Shown here piece after piece: positions 29,422 through 34,404 of a stretch of DNA of 64,000 nt. The position numbers were made by a program, and so were the translations under genes. The notes under the pieces are model-generated. The model ran no database searches and was not told where the DNA came from. It saw only the letters and a program-made list of their open reading frames with translations. Each line of letters begins with the position of its first letter. Within the stretch, counting starts at the first letter, position 1. The stretch comes from an uncultured Clostridia bacterium (lineage in GTDB: Bacteria; Bacillota; Clostridia; Oscillospirales; Acutalibacteraceae). The DNA lies in NCBI GenBank assembly GCA_945876745.1, contig CAMCPL010000003.1:62001-126000 (forward strand). The letters are read 5' to 3'.

Positions 29422-29841
29422 ATGGAGCTTTGGGACGCTTATGACAGAAATCTGAATAAAATCGAAAATATTGCATTGATTAGAGGAAAACAAATTCCTA
29501 ACGGCGTTTATCATATAGTGTGCGATATTGCCGTTAGGCATACCGACGGTACATATCTTATTATGCAAAGAGATTATAATAAGCACTTAGGCGGTATGTG
29601 GGAACTTACAGCAGGAGGCTCGGCGTTTCAAGGCGAAACGCCCGACGACTGTGCTAATAGGGAACTATCAGAGGAAACAGGAATTGTTTCGGAAAATATT
29701 AAACAAATCGGAATTGTTATCAGCGACGAACATAATTCTATATATTTTGAGTATTTGTGCATAACCGATTGCGATAAAAATTCCGTTACTCTGCAAAAAG
29801 GCGAAACCGTTGCTTATAAATGGATAGGCAATAAAGAGTAA
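29422..29841 (+). pseudogene. NUDIX hydrolase truncated by a MITE insertion
   Basis: The open frame is 139 residues with a full NUDIX box (GSAFQGETPDDCANRELSEE, then TGIV), so it may still be catalytic. Its last codons (GNKE and stop) are contributed by the left end of a 278-bp inserted element. Removing the element and one copy of the TA target restores the frame from YKWI straight into TLEELKSIKPDELATTRIQN and on to a stop at 30183. About 26 native C-terminal residues are therefore lost. It follows the kinase-NUDIX gene by 1 bp and was presumably co-translated with it. Confidence 0.8.
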
Positions 29842-30102
29842 TCCGAACCGTGGTTCAAATTGGCTGATTTGCCCTTACTCTGCGTTAAAAATACTCGGAA
29901 TACGAAAAGTATTCCTGCGTTTTTGTGCCTTGATTAAGAACAAATCAGTTCAATTTTAACTCTTCGACCGAAAATGCTTGTAGTAAAGATGAATTTTGGG
30001 CTTTGAGACGGAAGCCCTACTCGCGTAAGGCGACGGCGAAAAGTTCAAAAGTCGCTTTAATACAAGTATTTTCGGCAGGTTCGGATTACTCTTTATTGCC
30101 TA
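29825..30102 (+). mobile_element. 278-bp MITE with 23-bp terminal inverted repeats, copy 1
   Basis: The ends are perfect 23-bp inverted repeats: TAGGCAATAAAGAGTAATCC plus GAA on the left, the reverse complement on the right, including the duplicated TA target. No transposase is encoded. Inside are two long imperfect hairpins, one around CAAATTGGCTGATTTG / CAAATCAGTTCAATTT and one around CCGAAAATGCTTGTA / TACAAGTATTTTCGG. TA duplication is the habit of IS630/Tc1-mariner transposases. A second 278-bp copy, inverted, lies at 43103-43380. Confidence 0.88.
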
Positions 30103-30327: not shown

Positions 30328-30411
30328 TGTCTTTATTTTAAGATATATTGAATTTATTTCAAATTCTCAAAATCTTAAAAAACCCCTAAAAAAGCATTTC
30401 GTTAAAAATAA

Positions 30412-30443
30412 AACACCCATAAGCAACGCCTTGCTATGGGTGT
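30412..30443 (-). terminator. Probable minus-strand terminator beyond the restriction island
   Basis: ACACCCATA(A)GCA pairs with TGCTATGGGTGT (one bulge). On the minus strand the stem is followed by TTTTATTTTT. It could end the island operon running leftwards. Confidence 0.65.
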
Positions 30444-30459
30444 AAATGTGTTTGTACAG

Positions 30460-30474
30460 CATATTTGATACAAT
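30460..30474. repeat. Left 15-bp direct repeat bounding the restriction island
   Basis: CATATTTGATACAAT here and at 34301-34315, same orientation, identical. The preceding bases also agree (GTACAG versus GTGCAC). It lies just outside the left triple repeat and is a candidate attachment or duplication site. Confidence 0.6.
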
Positions 30475-30530
30475 GTGACCACCTGTCCCAAAATGTGACC
30501 CTGCGCCTAAAAATGTGACCAACTATAAAT
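30471..30530. repeat. Triple repeat with 20-bp period, left island end
   Basis: AATGTGACC begins at 30472, 30492 and 30512, exactly two helical turns apart, with unrelated 11-bp fillers. It lies between the left direct repeat and the stop of the island operon. A similar arrangement with another core lies at the right end. It suggests binding sites for a protein contacting one DNA face. Confidence 0.65.
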
Positions 30531-30571
30531 TTTTATTATTGTTGTTTATGAAAAGTATTTATTTTTTATAT

Positions 30572-31018
30572 TTATGATAATTCATTTTCAAGAAATTCAC
30601 ATAATTCGTTAATATCATTATCATCTTTTGATACAAATAAATAGTTTACAACACATTCTATCAAATCATTTTCAGTTCTTCCACTTCTTTTTAATTCAGA
30701 ACTTATAACTCCGTATAATGCTTTTCCTGTTGATATTGAATCTGGATCTTTTGGTGGTTGATTCTTTATGCCATTAAGATACTCTTTAATTATTAAATCT
30801 AAAGATTTTGATAAAAATACATAATCGTTTAACTCTTTGAAAAGTGCTTTATCAACATTGTTTATTAATTTTTCCAGAAGGTATTTTTCTAAACTTTTAA
30901 TTGGTAAATAAGCAGGACTAGTTTCAAATCCTATTTTTTCTTTTCTAATAAAGCTTGCTACTGATGGTTTTATATCGCGATCTAAAATTACTCTGATTTT
31001 TGTGATTGGTGATACCAT
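30572..31018 (-). pseudogene. C-terminal (TOPRIM) part of a frameshifted OLD-like ATPase-nuclease
   Basis: A 148-residue frame holding the second half of a TOPRIM domain, with the Asp motif VILDRD near its start, followed by a helical C-terminus. Its reading frame extends upstream past the ATG at 31018 through HQVLRYAYDIINTH to the G7 tract at about 31066-31072, where it should join the ATPase frame. It has no ribosome site of its own. Together with the upstream part it would make one protein of about 510 residues. It is last in the leftward island operon. Confidence 0.7.
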
Positions 31019-32067
31019 GTGAGTATTAATAATATCATATGCATATCGTAAAACTTGATGCCATCCCCCCCGATTGGTTGAACAAGGACTCGTTTATTAG
31101 ATAACAATCTCTTTTCCTGAATTATTCGTTCTACAATTTGTTTTGCTAAAATATCCTCAACTAAAAATAAAAAATCAAAACCATATGTTGATGCTTCCAA
31201 AGAGCGTGCTGCGTAAGCAGGATAACATGGGTTGATCAAATCAAGACTACCATCATGATATAATTGCAAATAATAAATGTTGCTCGGTGGAAGTTGCCTT
31301 AATATATCAATTGAATGAGTCGAAAACAGAATCATAAAATTTTTTTTATTAGATATTTCTTTAAAGAAACTTATTAATCTTCTTAATGAAGAAGAATGAA
31401 GGGCAAGTTCTATTTCATCTAAATATATAAAAGTCGGTGATTTTCCATATACTTTTCTATGTATTCTTAATTCAATTGAATATAGTATAGTTAAGAGAAG
31501 ATTTTCACCTGTGGACATATTTAATTGACTTACCATAATGTTGTTTTTTTCAATAAAAAATATAGGTCTTTTTAAATTTAATTCTTTAAGAATTTTTTTA
31601 TTTTTTAAAATATATAAATTAGAATAATAATCTTTATCGTCCCTTAAAATCTTCCCTAAATTTTCAATAATAAAAGTTGATGCTTTTTGCAACTTGTTCT
31701 TTTCAATGTTTGAAAATGTTTTTAATAATGAATAATCTACATCTTTAAATCTATTTCCAAATACAATGCTTCCCTCAAAAAAACCAGTAATATTTAAATT
31801 ACCTTCTGGTTCCATCCATTCTCCGTTTTCTGACTTTATAGTTCTGTGATAAGTTCCATACTTAAATTCGATTTCAGAATTCTCGCGAGGTTTTCCAAAA
31901 TAGTCTTCTAAAGTAACATTAAAAAATGAACAAGCGGCACATGATATTATTGTACTTTTTCCTGTTCCATTTTCACCTGTTAATGCATACAATCCATTTT
32001 CTGATGGAATTTGGAAATCGAAATCATCTATTCCTTTGATATTATGTATTTTTACAGAAATTCCCAT
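30988..32067 (-). pseudogene. N-terminal part of a frameshifted OLD-like ATPase/TOPRIM protein
   Basis: An AAA/ABC-type ATPase of the OLD group: Walker A GENGTGKST (residues 31-39), signature-like MSTGENLLL, Walker B TFIYLDEIE, switch His in ILFSTHS, then the Glu motif of a TOPRIM domain in FLVEDILAKQIVERI. At QPIGG the gene meets a G7 run (C7 on the plus strand) and changes into a non-family tail that stops at 30988. One extra G, or two fewer, restores the TOPRIM frame. It may be a disrupted, phase-variable or mis-sequenced gene. OLD-like nucleases often act in phage defence; here one accompanies a HaeIII-type system. Confidence 0.75.
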
Positions 32068-32131
32068 GATAAACATCCATTTTTATATATAATTTTTTAA
32101 ATTTCTAAAACAAAATATGTTATATAACTTT

Positions 32132-33085
32132 TTAATTCCAATAACAATTTATTGAAATAATTGTTGCAGGCATTCCGATAATTTGAACATCAAATTTCAA
32201 ACTTGTTTCAACTTTTGTTGAAGCATTATGTATTCGGAAACTAAATTGCCAACCGTTGTCCATGTACAGTTCGACTGTGTTTTTGCTATTTGGTTTAAAA
32301 TCAAGACTGACAATTCTTGTAGGCAATGTTGAAATTGGAACTTTTATTTTTGCTTCTTTTGTTGTGCTTGGCTTGTTTAAAGTGCCTCTCAAATTGTAGG
32401 TCTGTATTTGTGTTAGTCTTTTATTATCAATGCTTATAACTTTATAAAAATCAAATTCACCAAGCAAATATTCAACCATTTTTCTTGGAAGGTCAGGATG
32501 TTGTGAATTACTGAGTTTTATTTCATCAACAAAAGCATTTAAAATTGGAACATAAACATCATTTTCTTTATCATCTAACTCGCTCCATTTTAAGTCCTTA
32601 TTTTTACATTCTTTTAGATAATCAAAAACAACATTAACGCTATTCCAATATTGGTTAGAACATTCTACACCAAACCATTTCTTGCCAAAATCAATTTTAG
32701 GCGATAATCTACTGTGTTTAACAGCAAAATGGTTATGCTTTACGCTTAAACCAATCTCCCAATGAATATTTCTGCGGATAATCAGTATATCTCTAACATC
32801 ACCAATTTCACCTTCACTGTCTTTTTGAATTTTTAAATCGAGTTGATCGTTACCGTCTTCTATAATCAAAGGCTCTAAGTCGAAAATAGTTAATACAGCA
32901 GCTTTTGCACTTTCTGTTAATATTTCTTTTAATTGAGCATCAATGTTATTCCATGCATTTTGAGCAGCTTCATAACTTGAATTTTTATCTATTACAGCTA
33001 ATCTGAATTTGTTGATTTCTTCAGCTAATGTAATTAAACAAATATATTCATATGCTCTGCCTTGGTCATTACTTGCACTACTCAT
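32132..33085 (-). CDS. HaeIII-family type II restriction endonuclease (predicted GGCC)
   Basis: A 317-residue protein with the family N-terminus SNDQGRAYEYICLITLAEEI and a region typical of the HaeIII endonuclease family (GLSVKHNHFAVKHSRLSPKI). Length matches R.HaeIII, about 318 residues from memory. The start is placed at the ATG at 33085 because GAAGGAG lies just before it; the ATG at 33103 would put that site inside the coding region. The gene begins 11 bp after the methyltransferase stop. It should cut GGCC unless methylated. No controller protein gene is visible. Confidence 0.85.
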   Translation of the reverse strand: MSSASNDQGRAYEYICLITLAEEINKFRLAVIDKNSSYEAAQNAWNNIDAQLKEILTESAKAAVLTIFDLEPLIIEDGNDQLDLKIQKDSEGEIGDVRDILIIRRNIHWEIGLSVKHNHFAVKHSRLSPKIDFGKKWFGVECSNQYWNSVNVVFDYLKECKNKDLKWSELDDKENDVYVPILNAFVDEIKLSNSQHPDLPRKMVEYLLGEFDFYKVISIDNKRLTQIQTYNLRGTLNKPSTTKEAKIKVPISTLPTRIVSLDFKPNSKNTVELYMDNGWQFSFRIHNASTKVETSLKFDVQIIGMPATIISINCYWN

Positions 33086-33095
33086 ATTTTCTCCT

Positions 33096-34088
33096 TCATC
33101 CATTTAAAGCATCTTTTATTGAACATGCTATAATATATGATAAGTTTATAGGAACAGCATTTCCAATCATTTTATAACCATAATCCACATCGGTATAAAT
33201 AAATTTAAAATCATCTGGAAAGCCTTGTATTCTAGCGCATTCCCTTACAGTTAATCTCCTATATAAATCTTCATAACCTGGAACGAAAATACGCTTGTTC
33301 TTTTCAACAAATTTCATTTTTGGAGCTTGAGGATGTAATTGACATTGTCTGCCACTTGCTTGAACTGTGAAAGCTTGTTCATTCCATCCTCTGACTCGAT
33401 TTCTACTCATAAAAATAGTTGAATAAGCACCAATATAATATTCGTGATTTGGAATTTCTAAATCTCCGTTTGTTTTGTTTTTTGGTAAAGCAGGTATAGG
33501 TGTATCAACCAAATCACCAATAGCATCCTTCATAGTTAATTTGTCTTTTGCATTTGGTGTTGTTGGATTTGGAAATTTGAAATCAATCTTTAAATCTTTT
33601 CTAAATCCGATATAAAAAACGCGCTTTCTATCTTGTGGTACACCATAATCAGCAGCATTTACGAGTGTAAGTGTAAGATTATAACCACAATCTTCAAATT
33701 GCTGAATTATATTTTTTACAGCTTCTGAATGTCTGCTTGCCAACATACCCGAAACATTTTCGGCAAGAAAAAATTTAGGTTGCTTGTTTTTTAAAATTCT
33801 TATGTAATCAAAAAATAATTGACCTCTTGAATCATTAATGCCTCTTAATGAACCGGCTTCACTCCAACTTTGACAAGGAGGTCCACCGATGATTCCGTCA
33901 ATTTCATTTGGAAAGTCAGCATCTTTAATATTTCTAATATCACCTTTTATAAGTGGAGCAGCGTGGTTTGCTTCATAGGTTGCCCATATACCTTTGTCAT
34001 ATTCATTAGCCATAGATATATTAAAACCTGCTTTTTCAAAGCCTAAATCTAAACCACCAGCTCCGGAAAACAAACTAATCAAATTCAT
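33096..34088 (-). CDS. M.HaeIII-like DNA (cytosine-5) methyltransferase (predicted GGCC)
   Basis: A 330-residue C5 methyltransferase with motif [19 protein letters not shown], catalytic Cys in [10 protein letters not shown] (motif IV), ENV (motif VI), QDRKR (motif VIII) and GNAVP (motif X). It resembles M.HaeIII closely from end to end as I recall it, including the target-recognition part [20 protein letters not shown], so GGCC with methylation of the inner C is the likely target. It is first in the island operon, preceded by AGAGG and an AT-rich TATAAT region. Base composition is visibly more AT-rich than the flanking core genes, suggesting transfer. Confidence 0.92.
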
Positions 34089-34210
34089 AATTAAACCTCT
34101 AAAATTAATAATATAATTATATCATAAATTATCGATAAATAAAAGATAAATTCTTAACTTGAAAAAATTAGTACGTATTATTGTACCTTTAAACTATGCG
34201 AAATATAATC

Positions 34211-34270
34211 TTTTTCACGGAGTAGGGTGTATTTTCACGCAGTGCATTCTGTTTTCACGGTGTGTGTCTA
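34211..34270. repeat. Triple repeat with 20-bp period, right island end
   Basis: TTTTCACG begins at 34212, 34232 and 34252, exactly 20 bp apart (TTTTCACGG, TTTTCACGC, TTTTCACGG), with different fillers. Read on the other strand the core is CGTGAAAA, sharing GTGA and the 20-bp pitch with the left-end repeat. It lies upstream of the methyltransferase promoter and inside the right direct repeat. Confidence 0.65.
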
Positions 34271-34300
34271 AATATGTAAATCAAAAGGGTGATAGTGCAC

Positions 34301-34315
34301 CATATTTGATACAAT
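34301..34315. repeat. Right 15-bp direct repeat bounding the restriction island
   Basis: CATATTTGATACAAT, identical to 30460-30474. It is about 90 bp from the 3' end of tRNA-fMet, just past that tRNA's terminator. Confidence 0.6.
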
Positions 34316-34358
34316 AATACATTTAATAGAAACAAGTAGTTTAAATAATCTATAAAAA

Positions 34359-34402
34359 CACAAAAAATAGTACACTTTAATGTATCAATTAAAGTGTACT
34401 AT
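34359..34402 (-). terminator. Terminator of tRNA-fMet
   Basis: A perfect 15-bp stem (ATAGTACACTTTAAT with ATTAAAGTGTACTAT) and 6-nt loop begin 2 bp past the tRNA CCA end. On the minus strand the stem is followed by TTTTTTG. It shares TTGATACA with the nearby direct repeat. Confidence 0.88.
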
Positions 34403-34404
34403 AG

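What the first reader, a model, noticed from the sequence alone, without database searches (positions are those of the whole stretch)
30460..34315. HaeIII-type restriction island bounded by a 15-bp direct repeat next to tRNA-fMet
An AT-rich 3.8-kb block holds an M.HaeIII-like methyltransferase, a HaeIII-family endonuclease and an OLD-like ATPase/TOPRIM gene, all leftward. CATATTTGATACAAT lies at both edges in the same orientation. The right copy is about 90 bp from the 3' end of tRNA-fMet. No integrase or transposase is inside. It looks like a compact defence cassette moved in trans.
Basis: partly seen in the sequence, partly recalled or inferred. Interest (0 to 1): 0.72.

Follow-up and report, generated by a model that had tools for sequence, protein, structure and literature searches.

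The report
Defence cassette slotted behind a tRNA
A 4-kb stretch with a HaeIII-type restriction system sits between a tRNA gene and what looks like that gene's displaced stop signal, and its left end recurs beside other, mostly defence, genes behind other tRNAs, so it looks like one of a family of mobile cassettes that carry no moving enzyme of their own.

Summary
Comparison with related loci puts them at about 30447 and 34404, the base before tRNA-Met(CAT), not at the 15-bp repeat; that repeat's right copy lies about 90 bp inside. The left end (consensus TGTSTTT-N12-TGATACAATGTGACC) was found in six other loci: five genomes of the genus and a goat Clostridia MAG. They lie on the 3' side of tRNA-Met, tRNA-Gln or tRNA-Thr with different cargo, including two other restriction-modification systems and a schlafen-type helicase. 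The right end (hairpin with a TTGATACA loop, then 20-bp-spaced CGTGAAAA units) is shared with two of the six; the other four lack it. A terminator-like hairpin, probably the displaced tRNA terminator, lies just outside the left tip in all seven. No recombinase gene is inside, no rve transposase was found in the genome, and no target duplication in the three elements tested. Best reading: an integrase-less, site-specific tRNA-end cassette moved in trans. Movement, helper and mechanism are inferred; no empty site in a close relative was available.

The parts
30411..30446 (.). Terminator-like hairpin just outside the left tip; probably the original tRNA terminator, displaced (inferred)
   Evidence: folds with z -4.9; hairpins at the same place outside the six other left tips, z -2.7 to -6.9
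30447..30474 (+).
   Evidence: agreement among seven left ends starts 19 nt before TGATACAAT
30474..30520 (+). Left array: three TGTGACC units 20 bp apart
30572..31018 (-). ORF 148 aa, presumed TOPRIM tail of the ATPase gene, in another frame
   Evidence: no family match; the TOPRIM reading is mine
30988..32076 (-). ORF 362 aa, AAA ATPase (AAA_21; nearest PADLOC model ATPase-Toprim_I-B)
32132..33103 (-). HaeIII-family restriction endonuclease, 323 aa, full length
   Evidence: Pfam RE_HaeIII E 2.5e-141, model positions 1-298 of 298
33096..34088 (-). M.HaeIII-like C5 cytosine methyltransferase, 330 aa, full length
34212..34259 (-). Right array: three CGTGAAAA units 20 bp apart
34301..34315 (+). 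Right copy of CATATTTGATACAAT, inside the element
   Evidence: aligned with other right ends
34358..34404 (-). Right tip: hairpin with TTGATACA loop directly behind the tRNA; probable replacement terminator
   Evidence: z -5.3; like hairpins at the right tips of L181 and L257
34405..34480 (-). tRNA-Met(CAT), the presumed insertion target (outside the element)

Best explanation
Window 30447-34404 is a 3,958-bp non-autonomous, site-specific integrative cassette sitting exactly between tRNA-Met(CAT) and that gene's former terminator. The right tip supplies a new terminator, so the tRNA stays usable; the old one is left outside the left tip. Each end carries a TGATACA motif and a 20-bp-spaced array of short repeats pointing inwards, as core and accessory binding sites of a site-specific recombinase (most likely a tyrosine integrase) would be arranged. 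The enzyme is not encoded and would come in trans from another element. The cargo, here HaeIII restriction-modification plus an ATPase gene now split into two ORFs, is exchangeable. Shown: shared ends, different cargo, three kinds of tRNA, right boundary at the tRNA end, no recombinase gene inside, no target duplication in three elements. Inferred: that it moves, that the outer hairpin is the displaced terminator, and the kind of recombinase.
For: L181 (goat Clostridia MAG) has both ends, around an HTH gene, a type IIG-like methyltransferase and a specificity subunit, behind tRNA-Thr. A left-end profile found four more loci at E 3e-9 to 2e-5 and one at 0.017 among 80 genus genomes. In the four strong ones, as in the two starting loci, a tRNA lies 1.3-5.2 kb from the left tip with its 3' end towards it, where 15 other fetched loci hold 2 tRNAs in 197 kb. 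L257 and L181 agree at 70% over 196 nt up to the last three bases of the tRNA; window against L181 z 9.6 and against L257 z 6.5, 0 of 500 shuffles each. Hairpins outside all seven left tips. In L254 the hairpin outside the left tip and the one beside its tRNA match at 59 of 60 bases plus one gap. No duplication of 4 bp or more, end shifts up to 3 allowed, in the window, L181 or L257.
Against: No true empty site. The right end is not shared by L254, L255, L256 and L258: no CGTGAAAA and no GTGTACTTTT motif there. In L254-L257 a partial tRNA copy and filler stand between the element and the intact tRNA, so only the window and L181 abut an intact tRNA. In G042 the tRNA is about 20 kb from the left tip. 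The two arrays differ in sequence (TGTGACC, CGTGAAAA), odd for one binding protein. The inverted-repeat look of the tips is significant in the window (19 of 5000 shuffles) but not in L181 or L257 (800 and 1196 of 5000). No recombinase has been linked to these ends; site-specific recombinase genes were not searched genome-wide in G000.
Confidence: 0.5

Rival explanations
1. Transposon with DDE-type ends (Tn7-, IS21- or Mu-like): the 20-bp-spaced arrays bind a transposase that homes on tRNA ends and is encoded elsewhere.
For: Arrays at both ends with constant 20-bp spacing in the window and a fixed orientation towards the tRNA; the likeness to Tn7-like ends is recalled, not tested.
Against: No duplication of 4 bp or more beside the ends in three elements; no rve-type (PF00665) transposase in the 98.6% complete genome at E <= 0.001, although the control rang in 6 of 14 genomes. 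Other transposase families were not searched.
Confidence: 0.12
2. No dedicated mobility: the tRNA flank is a hotspot where cassettes are swapped by homologous recombination through shared ends and tRNA sequences.
For: tRNA 3' flanks in this genus are littered with partial tRNA copies and repeats; ends shared with other loci would serve as homology.
Against: The ends recur at three different tRNA genes with unrelated flanks and in a distant genome, which homology alone does not start; still, spread within one tRNA locus could go this way.
Confidence: 0.23
3. One reading: a cassette bounded by the 15-bp repeat, which would be its att site or target duplication.
For: Exact repeat at both edges, 1 of 3000 edge shuffles; G005 has a single CATATTTAATACAATGTAAC 130 bp from its tRNA-Met.
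Against: TGATACAAT belongs to the conserved left end at different tRNAs; L181 and L257 have no such flanking repeat; the right copy lies inside the alignable right end.
Confidence: 0.07
4. Decayed remnant of a larger integrase-bearing island (CIME in the strict sense) whose integrase recombined at the tRNA 3' end.
For: G042 carries a tyrosine integrase in a larger island at the same kind of tRNA, with tRNA 3'-end copies; other genus members have integrases near tRNA-Met (L031, 34% identity).
Against: No copy of the tRNA 3' end is seen at the left junction of the window, L181 or L257, and the ends are compact and repeated with different cargo.
Confidence: 0.08

Closest known systems
CIMEs and tRNA-targeted IMEs/ICEs (passages of PMC5704250 read)
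   Same: Site-specific at a tRNA 3' end, no integration gene of its own, tandem build-up at one tRNA, restriction-modification cargo known for such elements.
   Different: No duplicated tRNA 3' end at the far junction; boundary lies between tRNA and terminator; very small; the same left end at different tRNA genes.
Insertion of restriction-modification genes with long target duplication (Helicobacter work recalled; 17 papers hold the terms, listing only)
   Same: Bare RM genes inserted without integrase or transposase; L254 and L258 show about 60- and 100-bp repeats flanking the unit.
   Different: Window, L181 and L257 show no duplication; conserved element ends are present.
Tn7-like and IS21-like transposons (recalled)
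   Same: Several evenly spaced short repeats inside each end; one fixed orientation behind the target gene.
   Different: No target duplication, no transposase gene of the rve kind in the genome.
HaeIII restriction-modification (GGCC specificity recalled)
   Same: Both enzymes full-length members; the pair recurs in the order.
   Different: Other HaeIII loci of the order lack the ATPase (0 of 9) and the left end.

Membership tests
CIME (integrase-less integrative element) | no integration or transfer genes inside | tested here: met
   ORFs of the island are the RM pair and the ATPase/tail only
CIME (integrase-less integrative element) | flanked by attL and attR, one of them a copy of the target gene's end | tested here: not met
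   no shared sequence abutting the ends of window, L181 or L257
CIME (integrase-less integrative element) | can be moved by an integrase of a neighbouring or related element | not testable with these tools
   needs a circular joint or transfer assay
DDE transposon (Tn7/IS21-like) | short target duplication | tested here: not met
   three elements, end shifts up to 3 nt
DDE transposon (Tn7/IS21-like) | rve-fold transposase with matching ends | tested here: not met
   PF00665 absent from own genome; tested in this genome only
DDE transposon (Tn7/IS21-like) | same binding motif repeated at both ends | tested here: inconclusive
   both arrays hold GTGA at 20 bp, but units differ otherwise
HaeIII type II restriction-modification | HaeIII endonuclease and M.HaeIII-type methylase side by side | tested here: met
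HaeIII type II restriction-modification | cuts and methylates GGCC | not testable with these tools
   needs expression
OLD-like / ATPase-TOPRIM nuclease | ATPase and TOPRIM in one intact protein | tested here: not met
   two ORFs in different frames; assembly error, decay and phase variation not told apart

The most novel reading that the evidence does not exclude
An undescribed class of trans-mobilised tRNA-end cassettes: compact, mostly defence-bearing units with a common left end and, in one branch, a right end that brings a replacement tRNA terminator, inserted without target duplication between tRNA genes and their terminators, so that several tRNA genes serve as slots for exchangeable defence systems.
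Probability: 0.4. Interest if true: 0.8.

Novelty: new variant of a known kind. Interest (0 to 1): 0.6.

Why it matters
Restriction systems and other phage defences are known to move, but for many small ones no vehicle is visible. A recognisable end that joins different defence genes to different tRNA genes gives a concrete candidate vehicle, a search key for undescribed cargo (six of nine cargo proteins have no Pfam match), and a testable question: which enzyme moves them.

Tried and rejected
Empty site: the closest relative found, G068 (93% identical on the left flank, 88% on the right), ends its left contig at window 30246 and has other sequence beside its tRNA-Met. In G054, G067 and G005 the left-flank genes and tRNA-Met lie on different contigs, away from contig ends. 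G005's lone 14/15 match near its tRNA may be a relic left end or chance.

The 15-mer in relatives: 44 of 60 genus genomes have it at <=1 mismatch. Of 21 contexts printed (a part of the hits) seven share one conserved context and four another, both looking like coding sequence, so these are not element ends.

Left array at fixed spacing in 394 order genomes: own genome plus G243 and G186, both inside ORFs. Array and tip patterns in viral contigs: 51, 0, 0, 6 and 0 stretches. Among the 51, two match the left core with two mismatches (L105, L112); the six exact core matches have neither a second unit nor a right array. Ends against plasmids: no match. The island against plasmids and phages: 31 and 6 records; in the rows listed (20 of 31, and all 6) the matches cover RM genes or methylase sequence.

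Three GTGAAAA at 20 bp in genome contigs: 55 stretches; only L181 has the exact left core, L222 a lone two-mismatch one. Left-end model in 394 order genomes: own genome plus G160 (16 bits, E 0.02). In the genus 15 of 80 genomes had E <= 0.5: five strong including the window, G042, and nine weak. The weak ones and G160 have no tRNA within about 1.5 kb (two were fetched further). Both large searches used Infernal's stricter filters, so more diverged ends may be missed.

IS21/Tn7-like ends were considered because of the arrays and set lower for lack of target duplication and of an rve transposase. Inverted repeats as a general feature of the tips: dropped, significant only in the window.

Papers: seven searches were seen as listings with abstract starts; only passages of PMC5704250 were read. 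No description of these ends was seen there; the library holds open-licence PMC papers only.
Full report
What is there. The window holds a low-GC block with M.HaeIII-like and HaeIII genes and an ATPase, all leftward, beside tRNA-Met(CAT). Both enzymes are full length. The ATPase gene is not intact: its presumed TOPRIM tail is a separate ORF (30572-31018) in another frame, and the change of frame lies near a C7 run. Nine other HaeIII places were found in 8 of the 393 other genomes searched in the order (9 of 394 with the window's own). In those nine loci the endonuclease was recovered in 9, the methylase in 8 and the ATPase in 0 (one of them, L061, is a 3.4-kb contig), so the ATPase looks like a separate passenger.

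The 15-bp repeat. It is exact and unique in the genome. A direct repeat that long arises somewhere in 40 of 400 shuffled regions, but joins the two edges in only 1 of 3000. It is not meaningless, but the comparison below shows that it is not the boundary.

Arrays. TGTGACC stands three times, exactly 20 bp apart, just inside the left edge; CGTGAAAA stands three times, exactly 20 bp apart, on the other strand near the right edge. GTGA three times at 20 bp occurs twice in the window and in 0 of 100 shuffles.

The same ends elsewhere. A scan of genome contigs for three GTGAAAA at 20 bp gave 55 stretches. One, L181 (Clostridia MAG RGIG2609, goat omasum), also has the left end on the far side: TGATACAATGTGACCACCT is identical over 19 nt and followed by a second unit, 19 instead of 20 bp on. 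L181 carries an HTH gene, an N6-methyltransferase nearest to type IIG models and a specificity subunit, and lies behind tRNA-Thr. A left-end profile built from these two was run over 80 genomes of the window's genus. It found G466 and G467 (tRNA-Met) and G007 and G015 (tRNA-Gln) at E 3e-9 to 2e-5, and G042 at E 0.017 with an identical 15-nt core. In 394 genomes of the order it found only the window and one 16-bit match, so the end seems concentrated in this genus.

Cargo. G015: C5-methyltransferase and BsaWI-type endonuclease. G007: schlafen group 3 helicase (PADLOC candidate PDC-S41), a treble-clef repeat protein and a 209-aa protein. G466: a WYL-domain gene and three unknowns. G467: a short unit with a 143-aa ORF. 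G042: a unit of about 1 kb with a 240-aa protein, beyond a larger island that has type I restriction genes, an FRG protein and a tyrosine integrase. So three of seven units carry clear restriction-modification, one a candidate defence helicase, and three (G466, G467, G042) no recognised defence gene in the libraries used. The operon reads from right to left in the window and L181 and from left to right in G015, so the ends are not simply promoters or operators of the cargo.

Link to tRNA genes. In the four new strong matches and the two starting loci a tRNA lies 1.3-5.2 kb from the left tip, on the cargo side, with its 3' end towards the element. For scale, 15 other fetched loci, not a random sample, hold 2 tRNAs in 197 kb. 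In G042 the tRNA-Met is about 20 kb away, with tRNA 3'-end fragments about 1 kb from the left tip.

Left boundary. In the seven left ends agreement starts 19 nt before TGATACAAT (majority TGTSTTT; L257 has TGCCTGT and L181 TGTCTGA); further out only a T-rich tract at -21 to -25 is shared. Directly outside lies a hairpin of different sequence in each; all seven fold better than shuffles (z -2.7 to -6.9; weakest L255, 3 of 200 shuffles as good).

Right boundary. L181 and L257 agree at 70% over 196 nt, up to the last three bases of the tRNA. The window's right end scores z 9.6 with L181 and 6.5 with L257 (0 of 500 shuffles each); the partial right end beside G068's tRNA is weaker (z 3.6, 1 of 500, with the window; z 2.8, 8 of 500, with L181; z 5.9, 0 of 500, with L257). 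The shared tip is a hairpin with a TTGATACA loop. Such a loop stands directly behind the intact tRNA in 2 of 28 tRNA 3' flanks examined, the window and L181, and behind partial tRNA copies in L257 and G068. L254, L255, L256 and L258 do not have this right end, and in L254-L257 partial tRNA copies and filler stand next to the intact tRNA.

Reading. The simplest account is that the element enters between the tRNA and its terminator, supplies its own terminator and leaves the old one outside its left tip. L254 supports it: the hairpin outside its left tip matches the one beside its tRNA at 59 of 60 bases plus one gap. L258 has a similar but less perfect repeat of about 100 nt.

Mechanism. There is no recombinase gene inside, no rve transposase in the genome, and no duplication of 4 bp or more beside the ends of the window, L181 or L257. 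A motif near each tip, evenly spaced repeats and a fixed site fit a tyrosine integrase or similar recombinase acting in trans; this step is inferred. Against a tidy picture, the two arrays differ in sequence and the tips are significantly inverted-repeat-like only in the window (17 of 28, 19 of 5000 shuffles; L181 800 and L257 1196 of 5000). The integrase in G042 lies in the larger island and was not linked to these ends. Integrases were not searched genome-wide in the window's genome.

Verdict. It works like an integrase-less integrative element, but the flanking copy of the target gene's end that defines a CIME was tested and not met, so it is not filed as one.

Noticed in passing
window 29826-30102: A dispersed repeat of about 275 bp with 23-nt inverted ends (seen by eye) truncates a NUDIX gene (29422-29841). 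G068 lacks it at this site, and the comparison fits a TA duplication. Ten matches in this genome including the query copy, and many across the genus: a miniature transposon, IS630/mariner-like by recalled rule.
   Followed up: partly
L155 (G068) 312-804; also L254, L255, L256, L257, L073, L074: Partial copies of tRNA 3' ends (about 11-27 nt) followed by filler of roughly 150-250 bp and a terminator, sometimes in tandem (two 246-bp units in G068), pile up behind tRNA-Met and tRNA-Gln. They look like scars or miniature elements of tRNA-end integration.
   Followed up: partly
L258 9061-9783; L254 702-1028; L255 230-661: Proteins sharing a C-terminus (46 aa at 93% and 122 aa at 67% identity to the 240-aa protein of G042) with a Thr-rich stretch and no Pfam match are encoded next to the left end in three tRNA-Met units.
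   Followed up: no
L261/L258 (G042:C1 about 213-233 kb): A roughly 20-kb island between tRNA-Met and the left end holds type I restriction genes with several extra specificity-subunit ORFs around a small tyrosine recombinase (17679-18488 in L261), as in a phase-variable hsdS locus, plus an FRG-domain candidate defence protein.
   Followed up: no
window 31065-31071: C7 run at the frame change between the two ATPase ORFs; could be an assembly error, decay or a phase-variable tract.
   Followed up: no
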